From a virus: a stretch of DNA of 64,000 nt. Under the pieces are notes generated by a model. That model made no database searches and was not told where the DNA came from. It saw only the letters and a list, made by a program, of their open reading frames with translations. A program made the translations under genes and the position numbers. The DNA lies in the IMG/VR virus record IMGVR_UViG_3300029957_000005, positions 99,359 to 163,358 of that record, one strand, 5' to 3'. Below, in pieces: positions 8,064 to 56,147 of this stretch. Positions within the stretch are counted from its first letter, which is position 1. Every line of letters starts with the position of its first letter.

Positions 8064-8522
8064 ATGAAGATCAGTCAGAAGAACTTTTCCACTTTCCTCG
8101 CCGGCAAGCTCGATGAAGCTGCTTCCACGAAGACCAAGAAGAATCAGATCATCAAGGAGTCCTCGGACTCCTATCCGCCGGAGCTATCAAAGATCCCAGA
8201 CTCTCTGAGCAATGCTTGTAAGACAGCTCGAGTCATGATTGCTGGCTATGCCTCCATGATTAAGGACGCAGTTGCGAACAAGTCCGGAACAAAGGTAGAA
8301 GTTCGCGACGGTGAATCTCTCTCGTTTGGTTGGAACAACATGGGTGAAACCATCGTGACCACTGAGCTGACCTTTTACGTTCCACTTGGAACCCACACGG
8401 CCCAGGAAATCGAGTCCTACATTCCTCCGAAGATCGCCAAGATCATCAATTTCAGAAATCCAAATGTCAACGGGAACTACGTTTTCTCGGTTTCATTCAA
8501 GGCTTCGATCTACAGAAAGTAA
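8064..8522 (+). CDS. Candidate prohead core or internal head protein between gp20 and gp21
   Basis: The 152-residue product occupies the slot where T4 encodes core proteins gp67 and gp68, but I see no clear sequence match to either. The N-terminus contains KLDEAA near residues 15-20, fitting the T4 prohead-protease cleavage rule (hydrophobic-x-E, then Ala), which would support packaging in the head. The rest is a mixed alpha/beta protein ending with basic ASIYRK. A TATAGATA box lies 26 bases upstream. The role is inferred from position and the cleavage-like motif. Confidence 0.6.
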   Translation: MKISQKNFSTFLAGKLDEAASTKTKKNQIIKESSDSYPPELSKIPDSLSNACKTARVMIAGYASMIKDAVANKSGTKVEVRDGESLSFGWNNMGETIVTTELTFYVPLGTHTAQEIESYIPPKIAKIINFRNPNVNGNYVFSVSFKASIYRK

Positions 8523-8529
8523 TTTTCGA

Positions 8530-9156
8530 ATGATGAAGCTCCTCTCAGAAGACGTTAACTCACGGGTTGAACTGCTCACCGAGCAGACTGACCAGGGTAA
8601 GCAATTCTACATCGAGGGCATCTTCGCCCAGGCAGATCTGGTCAACGGCAACGGACGCATCTATCCATCCAGCGTCCTGATGCCGGAGGTAGAAGCCTAC
8701 ATCGCATCACACGTCAACACCGGCAGAGCACTTGGTGAGATCGAACATCCGGAACGTCCGAACGTCGACCTCAAGGAAGCCTCCCACATGATCACCGAAC
8801 TTCGCATTGAAGGTTCGAACGTCATCGGTAAGGCAAAGCTCCTCAAGACCGATCGTGGCGTTCTCGCTTCCAAGCTCCTCGAGTCCGGAGTCAATCTTGG
8901 TGTCTCTACCAGAGCACTCGGATCGGTGACCACCAGGGACGACGGGATCGACGAGGTGGACAATGACTTCAGACTGTTCGCAGTCGACATCGTACATACC
9001 CCTTCCGCCCCGGACGCGTACGTCAAGGGCCTTCTTGAATCAGTTGATTGGATGATCGATAAAGCCTCAGGCAAGATCACCAAAATCGATCGCAAGAGAC
9101 TAGAAAAGATCATCCTAGAGCGTAAGCTTCATCTACTGAAGAAAATTTTGCTCTAA
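8530..9156 (+). CDS. 21: Prohead core maturation protease (gp21)
   Basis: The 208-residue product has the T4 gp21 protease core: GEIEHPE with catalytic His near residue 73, and GVSTRALG with nucleophile Ser near residue 127, followed by FAVDIVHTPSAP. It digests the scaffold and trims head proteins before DNA packaging. I chose the ATG at 8530 (a second ATG is at 8533); a longer frame from 8386 would overlap the preceding gene extensively. The N-terminal LLTEQ may be an autoprocessing site. Confidence 0.93.
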   Translation: MMKLLSEDVNSRVELLTEQTDQGKQFYIEGIFAQADLVNGNGRIYPSSVLMPEVEAYIASHVNTGRALGEIEHPERPNVDLKEASHMITELRIEGSNVIGKAKLLKTDRGVLASKLLESGVNLGVSTRALGSVTTRDDGIDEVDNDFRLFAVDIVHTPSAPDAYVKGLLESVDWMIDKASGKITKIDRKRLEKIILERKLHLLKKILL

Positions 9157-9189: not shown

Positions 9190-10572
9190 ATGGCAAAGAA
9201 GCTGAAGTCCGTAATGGAAGCTGACAACGAGATCAATGACATCGAGGATCTCCTCAAGGGCCAGGAGCCTACGACCGTCCGTGACGGCAAGGACATCTTT
9301 GGTGAGTCTGAAGACGACGACAAGAAGGACGATGACGTAGAAGTCAATGAGTCCGACGATGACGACGATGAAGACAAGAACGATGTGAACGAAGCAGAGA
9401 TCGAAGACGTCATCGACGCTTCGGACAAGGTCCTCAATGCCATTGGGAAGAAGGACTCCAACGAAGGTACCTCCGGTGGAGATGAAACCATCGATGAAGG
9501 CGACGAGTTCTGCGTCGGTGACGACAACTCAGACGAGATCTTCGAAGACGAAGAGGCTGATGCTGAGAACGCAAGAAACAAGAAGGTCTCTGAAGCCAAG
9601 AAGCTGAAGGAAGCCAAGGACGCGAAGGCAGCCAAGAAGCTCAAGGAAGCTAAGGCAGCCAAGAAGGCAGCCAAGCTCAAGGAAGCTGAAGACGACGATG
9701 ACGACAAGGATGACCTTGACGAATCTGAAGACGATGACGACGATGACGACAAGGTCAACGAGTCAGACGACGATGAAGATGACGACAAGGACATGAACGA
9801 GTCCGACGATGATGACGACGACAAGGATGATGACAAGGTCAACGAGTCGACGCTGTCTCCGAAGGAGCTTAAGATCGTCATGGAAGCTCTCAAGATCCCG
9901 GCTTCTGCGAAGAAGGAAATCAAGACCATCTTCGAAGCTATGGTCAAGAACAAGATCAAGGCTCAGAAGTCTCTGATCGAAGCGAAGTCTGAAAAGAAGG
10001 TCGCTAAGATCCGTGAAGAGCTGATCGAAGGCGTCGACCTTTATGCCAAGGAAGTTGTGACCAAGTGGAAGGCAGCTAACAAGCCAGTCTTCGAAAACCA
10101 GGTCAAGCTTGCTCGTCTCGAGGAAGGCTTCCACAAGCTCGGTGAGATCTTCAAGGCCCTCGGTCTTGAGTCCAGCCTCAATGAGTCCGCAGTTGCTGCA
10201 AAGTACTCGACTCTGACCACCAAGTACAACGCACTTCTCGAGCGCAATCAGAAGCTCGAGTCCTACGTCGAAAAGATCCACGTTCGTGAGCTCTATGAGG
10301 CATGTGTCTCTGGTCTGTCCAAGAACCAGAAGCGCAAGTTCATCTCTCTCGCAGAGACGCTGGAATACGATACCGTCAAGGATCTCAAGGAGAAGCTTGA
10401 CGCAATTAAGAAGCTCTTTGTAGAGAAGAAGGTCTACGAAGATGACGAACTTGAAGACAAGACTGTGAACGAGGAGTCCTTCGACGACGAAGGCGTTCTT
10501 TCACCAGATGAGAACGACATCGGCGACAACGATGCCCTCGTATCTGAATCAGTCAAGCTTTTGATGATTTAA
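9190..10572 (+). CDS. 22: Major prohead scaffold protein (gp22-like) with long acidic repeats
   Basis: The 460-residue product lies between gp21 and gp23, like T4 gp22, but is much longer than T4's 269. Residues about 40-225 are an Asp/Glu-rich low-complexity stretch with runs such as DDDDDK and repeated VNESD units, plus a Lys/Ala section (KKLKEAK repeats). The C-terminal half (about 225-440) is the helical scaffold core. VMEA near residue 10 fits the gp21 cleavage rule. The acidic inserts probably arose by repeat expansion. The scaffold is degraded and lost on maturation. Confidence 0.87.
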   Translation: MAKKLKSVMEADNEINDIEDLLKGQEPTTVRDGKDIFGESEDDDKKDDDVEVNESDDDDDEDKNDVNEAEIEDVIDASDKVLNAIGKKDSNEGTSGGDETIDEGDEFCVGDDNSDEIFEDEEADAENARNKKVSEAKKLKEAKDAKAAKKLKEAKAAKKAAKLKEAEDDDDDKDDLDESEDDDDDDDKVNESDDDEDDDKDMNESDDDDDDKDDDKVNESTLSPKELKIVMEALKIPASAKKEIKTIFEAMVKNKIKAQKSLIEAKSEKKVAKIREELIEGVDLYAKEVVTKWKAANKPVFENQVKLARLEEGFHKLGEIFKALGLESSLNESAVAAKYSTLTTKYNALLERNQKLESYVEKIHVRELYEACVSGLSKNQKRKFISLAETLEYDTVKDLKEKLDAIKKLFVEKKVYEDDELEDKTVNEESFDDEGVLSPDENDIGDNDALVSESVKLLMI

Positions 10573-10603: not shown

Positions 10604-11893
10604 ATGTCAGGCAAGAACGCAAACCGTATCCTTCAGGAAAACTTGATCAAGAAGTGGAAGCCAGTTCTTGAGTCTTCGAACGCTCCCAAGTTCAAGAACC
10701 GCCAGCGCATGGTCGAAACGGCTATTCTCCTCGAGAATCAGCTGAAGGCGATCAAGTCCGACAAGGCGATGCTCTCTGAAGCAACTCCTACCAACGTCAC
10801 CGCCGGCGTTGCAAAGTGGGACCCGGTACTGATCGCAATGGTTCGCCGTTCCGCTCCGTCCCTGATCCACAACGAGATCCTCGGTGTTCAGCCGATGACT
10901 GGACCAACCGGTCTGGCCTTCGCTCTCCGTGCTCGCTACACCAGCCAGTCTGGTGCTGAAGCTCTCGGACTCTCTGAGCCGAACTCCGCATTCTCCGGAA
11001 CCGGAACCCAGGCCGTCAACGACATCTTTGCTCAGGCAGGCTCCCCGCTTGCTGACACCATCGATCGTGGTCAGGGTGTTGTAACTGCAACCGGCGAAGG
11101 TGACATCTCTGCAAAGATGGCGTTCACCGTCGACAAGATCTCGGTTGAAGCGAAGACCCGCTCGCTCATGACCAGCTGGTCCGACGAAACGACTCAGGAC
11201 ATGCAGGCGATCCACTCCATGGATCCTGAGACGATCCTCGCCGACATCCTGTCAACCGAACTCGTCGCTGAAATGAACCGTGAACTCGTCCGTACCATCT
11301 ACACGGTCGGCAAGTACGGTGCACAGACCCACACCGCTACCCCAGGTGTCATCGACATCAACACCGACTCCGACGGCCGTTGGTTCGTCGAGAAGTACAA
11401 GGGCTTGATGCTCCACCTGAACTTCGACGCCAACCAGATCTTCACCGAGACCCGTCGTGGTCGTGGTAACTTCCTGATCGTCTCCCAGGACGTCGCAACC
11501 GCACTCGGTGAGTCCGGTAACCTGGACTACGCATCGGCCATCTCTGATGGAACCGGCGTCCAGAACGACATCGCTAACTCGACCTTCGCAGGTATTCTCA
11601 ACGGCCAGTTCCGTGTTTATATCGACCCGTACATGGTCGGCCAGTTCGCGATCATCGGATACAAGGGAGCAACTGAGCTCGACGCAGGTCTGTTCTATTG
11701 CCCATACGTTCCGTTCTACGTCCGCAAGACGATCGACGAGACGTCCTTCCAGCCGAAGATGATGTTCAAGACCCGCTACGGTGTCGTCGCGAATCCATTC
11801 GTCCTGAAGAACGACGGAACCCCAGACGGTGCGACGATGACTCGCAACCTGAACCCATACTACCGCAAGGTAAAGATCACCAACCTGATCTAA
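10604..11893 (+). CDS. 23: Major capsid protein (gp23)
   Basis: The 429-residue product is an HK97-fold major head protein of the T4 type, with motifs such as PMTGPTGLAFALRARY near residue 105 and KTRYGVVANPF near the C-terminus. A prohead-protease site MLSE-A near residues 56-60 would remove an N-terminal propeptide, comparable to T4 gp23. T4 gp23 is 521 residues, so this version has less insertion-domain sequence. It is preceded by TATATAGC and AGGAG and followed by a strong hairpin terminator. Confidence 0.97.
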   Translation: MSGKNANRILQENLIKKWKPVLESSNAPKFKNRQRMVETAILLENQLKAIKSDKAMLSEATPTNVTAGVAKWDPVLIAMVRRSAPSLIHNEILGVQPMTGPTGLAFALRARYTSQSGAEALGLSEPNSAFSGTGTQAVNDIFAQAGSPLADTIDRGQGVVTATGEGDISAKMAFTVDKISVEAKTRSLMTSWSDETTQDMQAIHSMDPETILADILSTELVAEMNRELVRTIYTVGKYGAQTHTATPGVIDINTDSDGRWFVEKYKGLMLHLNFDANQIFTETRRGRGNFLIVSQDVATALGESGNLDYASAISDGTGVQNDIANSTFAGILNGQFRVYIDPYMVGQFAIIGYKGATELDAGLFYCPYVPFYVRKTIDETSFQPKMMFKTRYGVVANPFVLKNDGTPDGATMTRNLNPYYRKVKITNLI

Positions 11894-27230: not shown

Positions 27231-27929
27231 TTAATTCAGGTTTCGGACGATGAATTCTTTCGAACCGAGGTTGTTGGTGATCCAGATGATCTGGGAGGTC
27301 TTGACGATCTTATCGAGGATCACGGCCTGGTCGGTCTTGGTTTTGTTGATGTGAGTGATCCATTCTTGGTCCTGCTTCAGGGAGTGGACTAGATCGTCTC
27401 CATCCGTGACGTATGACCTGTTGAGAGAATAGATGTCGTAGTAGTCTGGGTTCTTGAGCTCCGGATGCTTGTCGTTCTTCTTGTAGATCTTGCTTCGAAA
27501 CTTGACGAAGCCGAATTTCTGATAGTCCTTATAGGCCTTGGCGATTTCGGCGTCCGTGATCGGGGTGTGGATCAGATCCTTCTCACCGTTCGCGGTTCTC
27601 AGACCTGCAAAACCTTCGGCAACTTTTCGATCGTCCGTCCACGAGGACAGGAACTTATTGGCCGCGTTGAACTTGGATCCTACTGTCTCGCCTCGATACA
27701 GACGAATGGTCGAACCTAGAGTCTTTCGAATAGGAGCAAAGACCGACTCTATCTCCTTGGCTATCGCATCGTTGTTCCGAATGGAGTTCTCTAGAGCACC
27801 TCCGACCCACTGAGATCTTTCCCAGGAGGAGATTGCATCCTTAGCCTCGTCGGACAGGGAGTTCCAAGCCTTCTTGGCCTGTCCGATGTAGGCCATCTCA
27901 TTCATGAACCTCGCGAATGAGCCAGGCAT
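27231..27929 (-). CDS. Putative ADP-ribosyltransferase with capsid-targeting-like N-terminus (Alt-like)
   Basis: The 232-residue protein shows an ART R-S-E-type arrangement: IRLYRGE near 74-80, FLSSWTDDRKVAEGFAG near 93-109, and a C-terminal strand with GSKEFIV where the catalytic Glu is expected. The second acidic residue of the usual ExE/QxE is not obvious. The N-terminus SFARFMNEMA resembles T4 internal-protein targeting peptides cut by the prohead protease after Glu. A TATAGATA late box precedes its operon. By analogy to T4 Alt it could be packaged, injected and modify host proteins. This is an inference from motifs. Confidence 0.55.
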   Translation of the reverse strand: MPGSFARFMNEMAYIGQAKKAWNSLSDEAKDAISSWERSQWVGGALENSIRNNDAIAKEIESVFAPIRKTLGSTIRLYRGETVGSKFNAANKFLSSWTDDRKVAEGFAGLRTANGEKDLIHTPITDAEIAKAYKDYQKFGFVKFRSKIYKKNDKHPELKNPDYYDIYSLNRSYVTDGDDLVHSLKQDQEWITHINKTKTDQAVILDKIVKTSQIIWITNNLGSKEFIVRNLN

Positions 27930-44830: not shown

Positions 44831-45322
44831 TTAGTCTGTCCAGACGGCCTTGAGAGCGCCGTCGTACCACTTGGCATATCCTTCGATCAGCTCGGCCTTG
44901 TCCATGATATTGATGATGCGACGAGCGTGGAGGAAGTCCGACCCGTTGAGGTCGATATAGTCCGAGAGCTTCTTTCCAGAGAACCAGCCTTCCTTCATTC
45001 CGATCACCGCAATGTCGGCTGCGATCACGGGATCCAGGGCGAGAGCCGGGTTCTGATGGATCGGCTTGCCTAGTTCCTTTTCAGCCTTGGCATAGTTGGC
45101 TTCCCAGGTCAGCTGGACGAAGCCACGACCATACCATGGGTAGTAGCGAAGGTGATGCTTTCGCCAGTCTTCAGAAAGCCAGTTGGCTTCGATGACCGGC
45201 TTCATGGTGGCGCCGGTCTCGTGGTAGGTAGTTGCAAGAACATAGGCACACTGGTTCCTGAGGAGTCCGTGTGCCTTGCTCGAGTCGATGAGGGCTTGCG
45301 TATAGCCTGCTGTGAGGTTCAT
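44831..45322 (-). CDS. Endolysin, GH19 chitinase/lysozyme-like
   Basis: The 163-residue protein shows VLATTYHETGATMKPV (catalytic Glu of HETG near residue 35) and RYYPWYGRGFVQLTWEANYAKA (about 59-80), the signature of GH19-type phage endolysins that cut peptidoglycan glycan strands. No signal peptide, so release would need a holin. The TAAATG overlap with the upstream gene suggests co-expression with late proteins. Confidence 0.88.
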   Translation of the reverse strand: MNLTAGYTQALIDSSKAHGLLRNQCAYVLATTYHETGATMKPVIEANWLSEDWRKHHLRYYPWYGRGFVQLTWEANYAKAEKELGKPIHQNPALALDPVIAADIAVIGMKEGWFSGKKLSDYIDLNGSDFLHARRIINIMDKAELIEGYAKWYDGALKAVWTD

Positions 45323-45639
45323 TTACTTACTTGCTTCAGATAGTCCAAGGCCTTTTGATTGGCCTGGATCAAGTTGACATCGGCGGATATGGTCACGTAG
45401 TAATCATAGCCGTTTAGTCTGTAGTGGATGTTCTTTTCAGCATAGCTTACTGAGGATCCAGACTTCTGCTGACTAGAAACTACTTGACCCTCTTTGTATA
45501 GAAGGTCAATAGCCTTTTTGTGAACCTTATCGTCCCCAGGAAATCCAGCATTCTTCCAGACAATAGTGCCAGGAATTGCAGCGGCCTCCTGGATATTTTC
45601 TAGGATGCTTAGGGACTTGCTTATTAGTTTTTCTGACAT
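45319..45639 (-). CDS. Hypothetical protein with prohead-protease-like N-terminal site
   Basis: The 106-residue protein has SILENIQEAAA near residues 11-21. IQE-A fits the T4 gp21 cleavage rule, so it may be a packaged internal protein. The C-terminal part is mixed (YYVTISADVNLIQANQKALDYL). It lies directly after the AAA+ gene, which has a stronger site of the same type. Confidence 0.55.
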   Translation of the reverse strand: MSEKLISKSLSILENIQEAAAIPGTIVWKNAGFPGDDKVHKKAIDLLYKEGQVVSSQQKSGSSVSYAEKNIHYRLNGYDYYVTISADVNLIQANQKALDYLKQVSK

Positions 45640-47244
45640 TTAGATGTACTTAATCAATCGCTTCCAGTTAGGATTACCGGACGAGCGAATGTCCATTCCG
45701 GCGATCAGGGTTCTCATGTTGACTTCGCCGAAGGATGAGGTGTTACCGCTCATGACTTCGTCCTTGAAGAAGTTGAAGACTTCGAGCTTCTCGTCCATGG
45801 ACTGGTTCGGAGATCCCAGATTGGAAAGGATCGAGGCCATTCTGTCCAGGACCTGCTGCTGAGTCAGGGTCATGTCGATGGTCAGAGAACGAGACATGAC
45901 GGCCGTGTCCAGCTTGCTCTTCGGAAGGTTCGAGATGAAGATGACCTGTCCGGTGAACGAGAACTCATTCGGGAGCTTGACGGTCGAAGTCGGATCGTCC
46001 ATCAGAGCCAATCTGGTTCTCAGGACGTAGGAGTCCGCATCGTCCTTGGAGAAGGCAGAGAGGTTGGTCGTCGAGGACGAGAACCAGGACACCGTACGAA
46101 CGGCATAAGAGTCCAGAGCAGCCTTGAGAATGTTGACCGCATCTTCGTCTCTCCAGATGGAGTCTGTATCATCGAACACGATCAGCTTGTCGTAGTTGAT
46201 GAACAGGGTACGATAGAGGGCAGCAGGAGTGACCTTGCCCTTGGCGATCACATAGTCAGATCTCGGCTGGAGTCCGCAGCTCTTAATCGTCTCCAGGACG
46301 GTGTGAGTCTTACCGATGCCAGGTCCACCGACGATCATCAGGGACGGACGCTTGCCGGAGGCAACGAGGGTGACGAGATCCTCAAGGTCCTGGAACAGGA
46401 GGTGAGTCGGCTGGATGTCTCCCTTGGCCTGGGTCGATGCCATCACGGATGTGATCTGACGAGCAATCTCCTTGCCCTGAGAAGAATTCGGAAGATCGGC
46501 TGGAGTCATCTTGTAGAACTTGCCGTCTTCGCCTCTGGTGATCAGGAGAAGGTCAGTGGCCTTGTTGGAAGGGATCTTTGATCCATCGTCCGTGGTCACA
46601 GTGGATCCCTGTGGAACTTCTCCAAGCAGGTTCCAGGTGCCTCGACCAGCCTTCATTCCCCAGATGATCGAAGGGATCGTGACATCATACTTGTCGGAGA
46701 TGGCCTTGATGTCTGCGAGAGTCATGGCCGAAAGCTTGCTTGGGAAGTCCTTGCGAGCCAGGTCGATGAAGGCCGGAAGTTCGACTCTCTGCTTTTCGGT
46801 CAGAAGCTGATCGTAGATGATGGTGTCTTTGGACTCAACGATGATCACTTCAGAACCAACTCCTGGGGAGCCAAGGATGGAGCCTAGGGCATCGGCAATC
46901 TGCACGATGTTGATCTCTTCAGGAATCTGAACTTGATAGTCCGGAGAAACTGCCTTGATGAAGTTCTTGAGACCGAACTTGTTCCAAATGTCCACCGAGG
47001 CGAAACGGAAGGCCGAACCATCACGAACGTAGTTCAATCTGAATGCAGACTGAGCCTTGTAGGTGTAGAGCACTCCCATACCTGTTCCGGAGGTCGACTG
47101 AAGGATCACCGATCCTTGGTCGCCACCATATCGGTAGATTGGACCCACTCTACGGGCTATGACCTTCTCAAGAAGACCAAGGACCTTGGAGAATTTGGAG
47201 ACGTCGAAAACTGCTTCTGTTAGGAGAAATTGCTTGAATGACAT
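45640..47244 (-). CDS. AAA+ ATPase with capsid-targeting-like N-terminus
   Basis: The 534-residue protein has an AAA+ module in the second half: MIVGGPGIGKTHTV (Walker A) near 300, KLIVFDDTDS (Walker B) near 355, and a sensor region around IFISNLPKSK near 443. The N-terminus MSFKQFLLTEA closely resembles T4 internal-protein capsid-targeting peptides, cut after Glu by the prohead protease. It could be packaged and ejected with the DNA. A CATAAATA late box abuts the ATG. The biochemical target is unknown. Confidence 0.72.
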   Translation of the reverse strand: MSFKQFLLTEAVFDVSKFSKVLGLLEKVIARRVGPIYRYGGDQGSVILQSTSGTGMGVLYTYKAQSAFRLNYVRDGSAFRFASVDIWNKFGLKNFIKAVSPDYQVQIPEEINIVQIADALGSILGSPGVGSEVIIVESKDTIIYDQLLTEKQRVELPAFIDLARKDFPSKLSAMTLADIKAISDKYDVTIPSIIWGMKAGRGTWNLLGEVPQGSTVTTDDGSKIPSNKATDLLLITRGEDGKFYKMTPADLPNSSQGKEIARQITSVMASTQAKGDIQPTHLLFQDLEDLVTLVASGKRPSLMIVGGPGIGKTHTVLETIKSCGLQPRSDYVIAKGKVTPAALYRTLFINYDKLIVFDDTDSIWRDEDAVNILKAALDSYAVRTVSWFSSSTTNLSAFSKDDADSYVLRTRLALMDDPTSTVKLPNEFSFTGQVIFISNLPKSKLDTAVMSRSLTIDMTLTQQQVLDRMASILSNLGSPNQSMDEKLEVFNFFKDEVMSGNTSSFGEVNMRTLIAGMDIRSSGNPNWKRLIKYI

Positions 47245-47249
47245 AAACC

Positions 47250-47257
47250 TATTTATG
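47250..47257 (-). promoter_or_regulatory. Late promoter-like box CATAAATA
   Basis: On the minus strand the box ends at 47250, six bases before the A of ATG 47244. Initiation would therefore fall on the start codon, and no Shine-Dalgarno site is present. Confidence 0.65.
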
Positions 47258-47501
47258 CCAAATGCTTCTCTAGTCCTAGGAAACCACCGGGGATGTAGCC
47301 GTCCGGACCCCAGATCTGAGGTAGGGTCCAGGGCTTAGGAATTCCCATGTATTCGAGCTGATAGAAGAGATCGTCTCGATATTCCGGATGCTTGGTGTTG
47401 ATGATCTCAAAGTCCTCACCGAGGAAGTCGAGAAGGTCCTTTGCCTTCTCGCAGTGAGGACATCCGTCCTTGGTGTAGACTGTATATCCGATGTTGCTCA
47501 T
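47253..47501 (-). CDS. Glutaredoxin / NrdC-like redox protein
   Basis: The 82-residue protein has the glutaredoxin fold pattern: YTVYTKDGCPHCEKAKDLL with active-site CPHC near residues 14-17, and TLPQIWGPDGYIPGG with the cis-proline near 60. It reduces ribonucleotide reductase, which is encoded immediately upstream. Confidence 0.9.
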   Translation of the reverse strand: MSNIGYTVYTKDGCPHCEKAKDLLDFLGEDFEIINTKHPEYRDDLFYQLEYMGIPKPWTLPQIWGPDGYIPGGFLGLEKHLA

Positions 47502-54996: not shown

Positions 54997-55605
54997 ATGG
55001 CAAAAAGAATAGCATCCGTCAATACCCGAAGGGAACGATTCCGTGAGAAGGAAGTCCAGAGAGACGCCATCAAGTGGTTCATCGGGACTCTTCGTGGAAC
55101 CCAGCAGAACAACGTCGGATCCGGAGATCTCGATCCCAACCTGCTCCTCCAGAACAGGCGCTCCACAGTCAATCTGATCCCCGGTCAGATCTACTTCATG
55201 AGGTACGATCCGAAGCACAAGGATACCCTTCCTTACTACGACACGGCACCTCTCTTCATCCTTCTGGACATTCGAGAGAACGGTCTGTTCGGGATCAACA
55301 CCCACTACCTTCCGTACCGTCTACGCATCCAGTTGATCAATGCCCTCCTGGACACGATCACCGCAAAGAAGTGGGATCACAAGACCAAGGCTCAGATCAA
55401 CTACCAGATGGTCAAGAGCATGTCGAAGTACGGCATCTGCAAGCCGGCCCTCAAGTCCTATCTGTTCGACCACATGCGATCCAAGCTGGTTCGTGTTCCA
55501 GCTGAGAACTGGAAGAGGGTTGCATACCTACCAATCGAAACCTTCGTCAAGGCCAGCAAACAGCGTGTGTGGCGCGAAACAGAGCGAGCAACAAAGAGAA
55601 GTTAA
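54997..55605 (+). CDS. Conserved T4-like phage protein (LPYYD...HYLP family)
   Basis: The 202-residue basic protein has PGQIYFMRYDPKHKDTLPYYDTAPLFIL (about 62-89) and FGINTHYLPYRLRIQL (about 97-112). This pattern is common in T4-like marine phages. I recall such proteins being annotated as virion or DNA-end-protector (gp2-like) proteins but cannot confirm it. It precedes a homing endonuclease with a TAATG overlap. Confidence 0.65.
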   Translation: MAKRIASVNTRRERFREKEVQRDAIKWFIGTLRGTQQNNVGSGDLDPNLLLQNRRSTVNLIPGQIYFMRYDPKHKDTLPYYDTAPLFILLDIRENGLFGINTHYLPYRLRIQLINALLDTITAKKWDHKTKAQINYQMVKSMSKYGICKPALKSYLFDHMRSKLVRVPAENWKRVAYLPIETFVKASKQRVWRETERATKRS

Positions 55606-56147
55606 TGTTTCATTTTGTGTACAAGACCACCAATCTAGAGAACGGTCGTTACTACATTGGCAAGTGTACTACGAAGTATCTCAACAAGAAGTATCTGGGC
55701 TCTGGTAAAATTCTTTTGGAAGCGATCAAGAAGTATGGAGAAGAGAATTTCAAAAGAGAAATTCTAGCCTTCACTGATTCTCCAGAAGCCAATGCAGAAA
55801 AGGAAAAGGAGTTGATAGGAGATTTGTGGGAAACAGATCTTCTTTGCTACAACCTCAAAGCTGGCGGACTAGGAGGCAGGCCAAAAGGAATGCCTTTGAC
55901 TCGAATCGCAAGATACAAAATCTCCATGGCTCTAAAAGGCAAAGCTAAGAGTCCAGAACATGTTGCTAATCTCAAGAAACGAGTCTTTTCAGAAGAGACC
56001 AGACGACGCATATCAGAAGCAGCGAAGAATAGAGCTCCTATGACTGAAGAGCATAAAAGAAAGCTCGGTATGATTCACAAAGGAAAGCCTTTGTCTGAAG
56101 AACACAAGCGTAAAGTTTCTGAAGGGGTCAAGAGGGCGTTGGCATGA
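55605..56147 (+). CDS. GIY-YIG homing endonuclease (Seg-like) with NUMOD3 repeats
   Basis: The 180-residue protein has a GIY-YIG domain (FVYKTTNLENGRYYIGKC, residues 4-21; the canonical GIY is replaced by FVY) with EKELIGDLW later, and C-terminal NUMOD3-like repeats (SEETRRRISEAAKNR, TEEHKRKLG, SEEHKRKVSEG). It cuts phage DNA lacking the gene and so spreads itself. Base composition is visibly A/T-richer than its neighbours. It starts in the TAA of the previous gene and its stop overlaps the next ATG. Confidence 0.9.
   Translation: MFHFVYKTTNLENGRYYIGKCTTKYLNKKYLGSGKILLEAIKKYGEENFKREILAFTDSPEANAEKEKELIGDLWETDLLCYNLKAGGLGGRPKGMPLTRIARYKISMALKGKAKSPEHVANLKKRVFSEETRRRISEAAKNRAPMTEEHKRKLGMIHKGKPLSEEHKRKVSEGVKRALA

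What the first reader, a model, noticed from the sequence alone, without database searches (positions are those of the whole stretch)
45640..47244. AAA+ ATPase with a capsid-targeting peptide: candidate injected motor protein
The N-terminus MSFKQFLLTE-A has the form of T4 internal-protein capsid-targeting sequences (short, aromatic/basic, ending in hydrophobic-x-x-E, cleaved by gp21). An abutting late box fits virion expression. I know of no AAA+ enzyme described as packaged this way, so it may act on the host at the moment of entry. The adjacent 106-residue protein has a comparable IQE-A site.
Basis: partly seen in the sequence, partly recalled or inferred. Interest (0 to 1): 0.78.

Follow-up and report, generated by a model that had tools for sequence, protein, structure and literature searches.

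The report
Capsid-tagged ATPase of T4-like phages
A T4-like phage, and a scattered set of related phages, attach what looks like a capsid-entry tag to an ATP-driven machine that T4 makes in an untagged form, so the machine is probably carried inside the virus particle and delivered with the DNA.

Summary
The frame is real (minus strand). It encodes an AAA+ ATPase whose core is homologous to T4 NrdC.10 (PHROG_1250, E 1.4e-36), plus a 280-residue N-terminal extension that NrdC.10 lacks, starting MSFKQFLLTE|A. A tag pattern fits 3 of 232 T4 proteins (IPII, IPIII, gp61.1) and 1 of 1,408 window start codons, this one. The peptide is the most conserved ten-residue stretch of the extension in four relatives, yet is predicted disordered. 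Among NrdC.10-type proteins, 13 of 19 long forms carry a gp21-type site near the start, against 2 of 27 short ones. gp21, gp22 and gp23 with a matching LSE|A site lie in the window. In two relatives the gene lies among virion genes. I judge a packaged, gp21-processed ATPase likely (about 0.7), delivery at entry plausible, its target unknown. The late-box argument is weak, and the 106-residue neighbour's site is of a kind found in 6 of 149 background ORFs. No virion data exist here. Tagged internal proteins are known; I found no paper describing an AAA+ member.

The parts
45640..47244 (-). AAA+ ATPase, 534 aa, long-form relative of T4 NrdC.10 with a capsid-tag-like N-terminus
   Evidence: ORF; PHROG_1250 E 1.4e-36; T4 NrdC.10 match E 7e-14
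47215..47244 (-). residues 1-10 MSFKQFLLTE, candidate capsid-targeting peptide; predicted gp21-type cut after E10
   Evidence: motif tests; conservation; pLDDT about 35 for residues 1-10
46915..47211 (-). N-terminal domain about residues 12-110 (helix 15-33 plus four-strand sheet), no named family found
   Evidence: models; no phage match with residues 1-188; no solved relative at E<0.5
45643..46407 (-). AAA+ core, residues 280-534
   Evidence: best Z 13.7 over 200 residues to CbbQ, tied with or close to other AAA+ chains
46306..46329 (-). Walker A GGPGIGKT (306-313)
   Evidence: G306, G309, G311, K312 invariant in 22 rows
46162..46185 (-). Walker B LIVFDDTD (354-361)
   Evidence: D358, D359, D361 invariant in 22 rows
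47250..47257 (-). CATAAATA, proposed late box; weak
   Evidence: 13 sites with up to 1 mismatch against 8.0 expected; 5 bases from the ATG
45319..45639 (-). 106-aa neighbour with IQE-A at 16-19; tag not supported
47253..47501 (-). glutaredoxin (nrdC-like), 8 bases upstream
   Evidence: PF00462 E 1.7e-9
8530..9156 (+). gp21-type prohead protease, the presumed processing enzyme
   Evidence: PF03420 E 1.7e-39; phrog_207 E 4.8e-68
9190..10572 (+). gp22-type scaffold, presumed binding surface for the tag
   Evidence: phrog_237 E 2.1e-17
10604..11893 (+). gp23-type major capsid protein with LSE|A at residues 57-60, same cleavage form
   Evidence: phrog_138 E 3.6e-129; site
8064..8522 (+). 152-aa protein between portal and protease genes, N-terminus MKISQKNFSTFLAGKLDE|A; candidate second tagged core protein
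   Evidence: no homologue in phages
27231..27929 (-). 232-aa protein, ADP-ribosyltransferase-like by eye, N-terminus MPGSFARFMNE|M; possible second tagged cargo

Best explanation
The first 10 residues act as a T4-type capsid-targeting sequence. Late in infection the ATPase binds the gp22 scaffold through F3 and F6, is enclosed in the prohead, and is cut after E10 by gp21, leaving an ATPase that begins at Ala11 loose among the DNA. It leaves with the DNA at the next infection and works in the new host cell before phage genes are expressed. It does there the job that NrdC.10 does in phages that make it after entry, much as T4 pairs injected Alt with newly made ModA and ModB. Its substrate is unknown; the roughly 270-residue part between tag and ATPase core probably chooses it. 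Shown here: the tag-like peptide, its conservation, its association with the long form, a gp21-type protease and a matching gp23 site, and one NrdC.10-type gene per record. Inferred: packaging, cleavage, delivery and early action.
For: Motif rarity in window and T4. In window, L007, L008 and L036 residues 2-11 are the most conserved of 236 ten-residue windows over residues 2-281 (cross-pair identity 0.72), yet residues 1-10 have pLDDT about 35. A hydrophobic-x-E-A site within residues 4-32 occurs in 13 of 19 long forms against 2 of 27 short forms (Fisher 1.9e-5; shuffle mean 1.2 of 19, none of 20,000 reached 13) and 6 of 149 neighbouring ORFs. gp21 and gp23 LSE|A are in the window; a gp21-type protease was found in 7 of 18 other long-form records. 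In L008 the gene precedes tail tube and portal; in L048 it lies between portal and head-closure genes with an endonuclease gene interposed. One NrdC.10-type gene in each of 12 records. In T4 IPIII, residues 4 and 7 govern targeting and 8 and 10 processing, and fusions to proteins as large as beta-galactosidase were packaged (PMC9026906 passages).
Against: No virion or N-terminal peptide data. Long forms without the EA site: L017, L020, L037 (ISE|S), L054, L057, L058; L054 and L057 appear to share the N-terminal domain. Tagged members L050 (54 kb) and L051 (136 kb) lie in records without a recognised gp21-type protease, though records may be fragments. Late-promoter evidence is weak. Members are related, so counts are not independent; supported branches of the tree force at least 4 changes of the tagged label. 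The pattern and the residues allowed at its first position were chosen after seeing sequences.
Confidence: 0.58

Rival explanations
1. The tag brings the ATPase into the prohead to work during assembly, for instance as a remodelling factor for scaffold or portal; any delivery is incidental.
For: Virion-gene neighbourhoods in L008 and L048. AAA+ cores of the remodelling kind (CbbQ, NorQ) are among the top fold matches, tied with others.
Against: T4 and many relatives keep an untagged NrdC.10. No counterpart is known among T4 assembly factors (recalled). Gene position varies; here it sits with nrd genes.
Confidence: 0.2
2. The N-terminal peptide is not a packaging signal. The protein is an ordinary intracellular NrdC.10-type ATPase made with the nrd operon, and the conserved peptide serves folding or a partner.
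For: nrdA, glutaredoxin and ATPase genes are adjacent here and in L007; the best box is too close to the ATG; six of 19 long forms lack the EA site.
Against: The peptide is disordered in the model yet the most conserved stretch; both the aromatic pair and the E-A site of T4 tags are present; L007 has a terminator-like hairpin and a GATAAATA between glutaredoxin and ATPase genes.
Confidence: 0.17
3. A narrower form of the best explanation: it is packaged specifically as an anti-defence effector, like T4 IPI against GmrSD.
For: IPI, the T4 internal protein with a known role, is anti-defence, and IPIII is needed on one E. coli strain (PMC3012670 and PMC9391042 passages); the long form has a patchy distribution.
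Against: No defence target is suggested; PADLOC gives only a weak AAA-type match, mad8 E 4.6e-5; NrdC.10-type cores occur in 1,215 phage records.
Confidence: 0.25

Closest known systems
T4 internal proteins IPII and IPIII (capsid-targeting sequence MKTYQEFIAE|A)
   Same: Short N-terminal peptide with an aromatic pair three apart, hydrophobic-x-E before the cut, Ala after it.
   Different: This cargo is a 534-residue AAA+ enzyme rather than a small protein; aromatics at 3 and 6 rather than 4 and 7.
T4 NrdC.10 / PHROG_1250
   Same: Homologous AAA+ core; in both genomes the gene lies downstream of a glutaredoxin/thioredoxin (nrdC) gene, at some distance in T4.
   Different: T4 NrdC.10 is 325 residues, with no tag and no homologous N-terminal domain.
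T4 Alt (packaged ADP-ribosyltransferase, against newly made ModA and ModB)
   Same: Would be the same arrangement: an enzyme delivered by the virion in place of one made after entry.
   Different: Different chemistry. Alt is noted as present in the T4 capsid (T4 record note); this one is not shown to be.
Phage P1 Dar proteins
   Same: Large internal proteins co-ejected with DNA (PMC12810830 passages).
   Different: Sequence relation not tested; a different packaging route.

Membership tests
T4-type internal (CTS-bearing) head protein | N-terminal propeptide with aromatic targeting residues and hydrophobic-x-E|A/G/S cleavage site | tested here: met
   MSFKQFLLTE|A; one-residue offset of the aromatics relative to IPIII
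T4-type internal (CTS-bearing) head protein | gp21-type prohead protease in the same phage | tested here: met
   window 8530-9156, PF03420 E 1.7e-39
T4-type internal (CTS-bearing) head protein | late expression | tested here: inconclusive
T4-type internal (CTS-bearing) head protein | presence inside the virion and cleavage after E10 | not testable with these tools
   needs virion mass spectrometry
NrdC.10 / PHROG_1250 ATPases | homologous AAA+ core | tested here: met
   E 1.4e-36; tree
NrdC.10 / PHROG_1250 ATPases | stand-alone architecture as in T4 (325 aa) | tested here: not met
   534 aa with a long N-terminal extension. Filed as a long-form relative, not as NrdC.10 itself
MoxR/CbbQ or RFC-type AAA+ clade | clade-specific structure | tested here: inconclusive
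   CbbQ/NorQ, dynein, proteasome and RFC rows within about 2 Z

The most novel reading that the evidence does not exclude
One AAA+ enzyme family has been switched several times between being made after infection and being pre-loaded in the virion by a short N-terminal tag plus a cargo-side domain. In some large phages neighbouring genes carry the same kind of tag, so a whole packaged set of proteins could be read from N-termini alone.
Probability: 0.38. Interest if true: 0.8.

Novelty: new variant of a known kind. Interest (0 to 1): 0.62.

Why it matters
If right, a power-stroke enzyme is delivered with phage DNA, and its untagged cousin NrdC.10, a T4 protein of unknown role, gains a hypothesis: it acts at the very start of infection. 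It also gives a simple, testable rule (aromatic-x-x-aromatic, then hydrophobic-x-E|A in the first 32 residues) for predicting which proteins of T4-like and larger phages are carried in the head.

Tried and rejected
Late box as support: not above chance and badly placed. 106-residue neighbour as a second cargo: no homologue, background-level site. N-terminal domain search: no phage match with residues 1-188 of this protein; residues 1-169 of the L024 protein matched only their own record; no solved relative. Its fold could not be searched alone, both prediction jobs being used. AAA+ clade: unresolved. Relatives in cellular genomes: one weak match in a Peregrinibacteria assembly. Two scans of viral contigs gave nothing new. 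A virion proteome for a relative: the abstract of the Atu_ph07 paper reports 112 additional virion-associated proteins, and the passages seen do not say whether its NrdC.10-type protein is one (PMC6102473). Tagged neighbours: aromatic-pair N-termini in 26 of 96 neighbours of tagged members against 34 of 291 neighbours of short ones; confounded by base composition and uneven, so not relied on.

Rows left out of the 46-protein count: L047, L052 and L055 (N-terminus off the contig), L015 (no Walker A match by the pattern), L009 and L023 (same contig as L007), L035 and L061-L067 (weak matches or other AAA+). L056, a broken 79-residue frame, stayed in the short set. Starts were the first ATG; those of L039 and L057 are doubtful. 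With a stricter first position [LIVM], reading the list and the window protein gives 11 of 19 long forms and still 2 of 27 short ones. The tree holds 47 rows: L056, L015 and L059 were too short or without Walker A, and the three open-ended rows were kept there.

Full report
What is there. The frame 45640-47244 is on the minus strand, 534 codons, ATG start. It follows nrdA and a glutaredoxin gene (47253-47501; PF00462) and precedes a 106-residue frame and a GH19-type endolysin-like frame. The record is a 163,358-base virus contig. The window also holds terminase, sheath, tail tube, portal, prohead protease, scaffold and major capsid genes of T4 type (family matches for five of these; sheath and tube assigned by eye). 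The capsid protein is nearest to those of Pelagibacter phage HTVC008M and Methylophilales phages, at about 50% identity.

The enzyme. Residues 283-392 give the best PHROG_1250 stretch (E 1.4e-36 for the whole protein), and tblastn finds 1,215 phage records, none over 80% of the query. The T4 counterpart is NrdC.10 (E 7e-14); the one paper in the library that names it reports only an AAA motif (PMC1524935 passage). Walker A and Walker B residues are invariant across 22 rows, and N439, R452 and R511 nearly so (one row there is truncated). The predicted fold of 280-534 is AAA+ (best Z 13.7, 3.3 A over 200 residues, CbbQ), with other AAA+ classes tied or close. Most long forms have a longer stretch between Walker B and sensor 1 (67-82 residues against 49-64 in the short forms measured; exceptions L017, L020, L053 and L058). 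Residues 1-188 had no match in phages.

The tag. Passages of a T4 review say that IPIII residues 4 and 7 govern targeting and 8 and 10 processing (PMC9026906). T4 sequences taken from the record read MKTYQEFIAE|A for IPII and IPIII. Pattern A (aromatic-x-x-aromatic, up to two residues, hydrophobic-x-E, small or polar residue) matches 3 of 232 T4 proteins: IPII, IPIII and gp61.1. In the window it matches 1 of 1,408 start codons, this gene; 0.074 are expected for 104 greedy genes, and P is 0.002 when its own residues 2-30 are shuffled. The pattern was written after seeing this sequence; T4 served as the outside check. In 60 kb taken from the rest of the record no clean further match appeared.

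Relatives with the extension. L007 (57% identity) begins MSFKQFLTE|A, L008 (33%) MISFSRFLTE|A, L036 (33%) MIGFNQYLTE|A, and the 642-kb uncultured phage LR756502 MKIKKYQAFYE|A. Across window, L007, L008 and L036 the first ten residues after Met are the most conserved of 236 ten-residue windows in residues 2-281. The model gives residues 1-10 a mean pLDDT of 35 and starts the domain at about 12-15. A conserved, unstructured, E-A-ended leader is what a removable propeptide predicts.

Association. Over 46 NrdC.10-type proteins, 13 of 19 with Walker A at residue 180 or later carry hydrophobic-x-E-A within residues 4-32, against 2 of 27 shorter ones (Fisher 1.9e-5); with E-[AGS], 14 of 19 against 4 of 27. 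Shuffling gives 1.2 of 19, with none of 20,000 reaching 13. Other ORFs on the same stretches: 6 of 149. The proteins are related: a tree puts long tagged forms in several groups, needing 6 changes of that label and at least 4 by supported branches, so the effective number of events is small. Long forms without EA are L017, L020, L037, L054, L057 and L058.

Machinery and context. gp21 (PF03420 E 1.7e-39) and the gp23 LSE|A site are in the window. A gp21-type protease was found in 7 of 18 other long-form records: those of L007, L024, L036, L037, L038, L043 and L053. Several of the others are short fragments, but L051 (136 kb) and L050 (54 kb) are not short and gave none. In L008 the ATPase gene directly precedes tail tube and portal genes; in L048 it follows a portal gene with an endonuclease gene between and precedes head closure. 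A phrog_7595 gene lies downstream in L036, L038 and L043. Each of 12 records searched has a single NrdC.10-type gene: none of the ten with a long form shows a separate short one, with the caution that records may be incomplete.

Late expression. CATAAATA at 47250-47257 is one mismatch from the T4 late box, but 13 such sites occur against 8.0 expected, and it sits 5 bases from the ATG. L007 has a hairpin and T-run, GATAAATA and AAAGGAG before its ATG, which is more convincing but in a relative only.

Reading. The simplest account is a packaged, gp21-trimmed AAA+ ATPase, delivered with the DNA in place of an NrdC.10 made after entry. That NrdC.10 is made early in T4 is my recollection and inference from its place, not a result. 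An assembly role inside the prohead fits much of the same data. The target in either case is unknown.

Literature. Passages (not whole papers) were seen of PMC9026906, PMC3012670, PMC9391042, PMC1524935, PMC5694885, PMC6102473, PMC10052503 and PMC12810830. Searches turned up, in titles and abstracts listed, no paper on an AAA+ protein with a capsid-targeting sequence; the pair 'capsid targeting sequence' and 'AAA' had no paper at all. That library lacks most subscription journals and all bioRxiv preprints.

Noticed in passing
window 27231-27929 (-): 232-aa protein starting MPGSFARFMNE|M with an ADP-ribosyltransferase-like look (LYRG, SWTDDRKVAEGFAG; recalled motif, no family match). Homologues in Sinorhizobium phage phiM9 (...HEFFE|N) and Rhizobium phage RHph_I1_18 (MISFKSHLNE|S); could be an Alt-like tagged cargo.
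   Followed up: partly
L071 830-1495: Protein annotated as a putative kinase next to the RHph_I1_18 protein, beginning LKSFSEHIAE|S, also tag-like; no Pfam match.
   Followed up: partly
L036, L038, L043, L024 neighbours: Several genes beside the ATPase in large phages start with similar peptides (MKSYKEF..., MKHLELFESF..., MKILNFNTFLNE, MSRIRKYKEFITES); possibly a packaged-protein cluster.
   Followed up: partly
records behind L024, L037, L043, L053: The gp21-type protease lies in open frames of 622-711 residues, much longer than T4 gp21, suggesting a fused extension.
   Followed up: no
window 55569-56147 (+): GIY-YIG-like homing endonuclease frame (by eye) close to genes conserved in L007, where it is absent.
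   Followed up: no
T4 gene 61.1 (L032 18966-19130): T4 gp61.1 begins MKTFKEFIKED, matching the tag pattern of IPII and IPIII; it may be an unrecognised internal protein.
   Followed up: no
window 8064-8522 (+): Orphan 152-aa protein in the gp67/gp68 position with NFSTF and LDE|A near its N-terminus; no phage homologue.
   Followed up: partly
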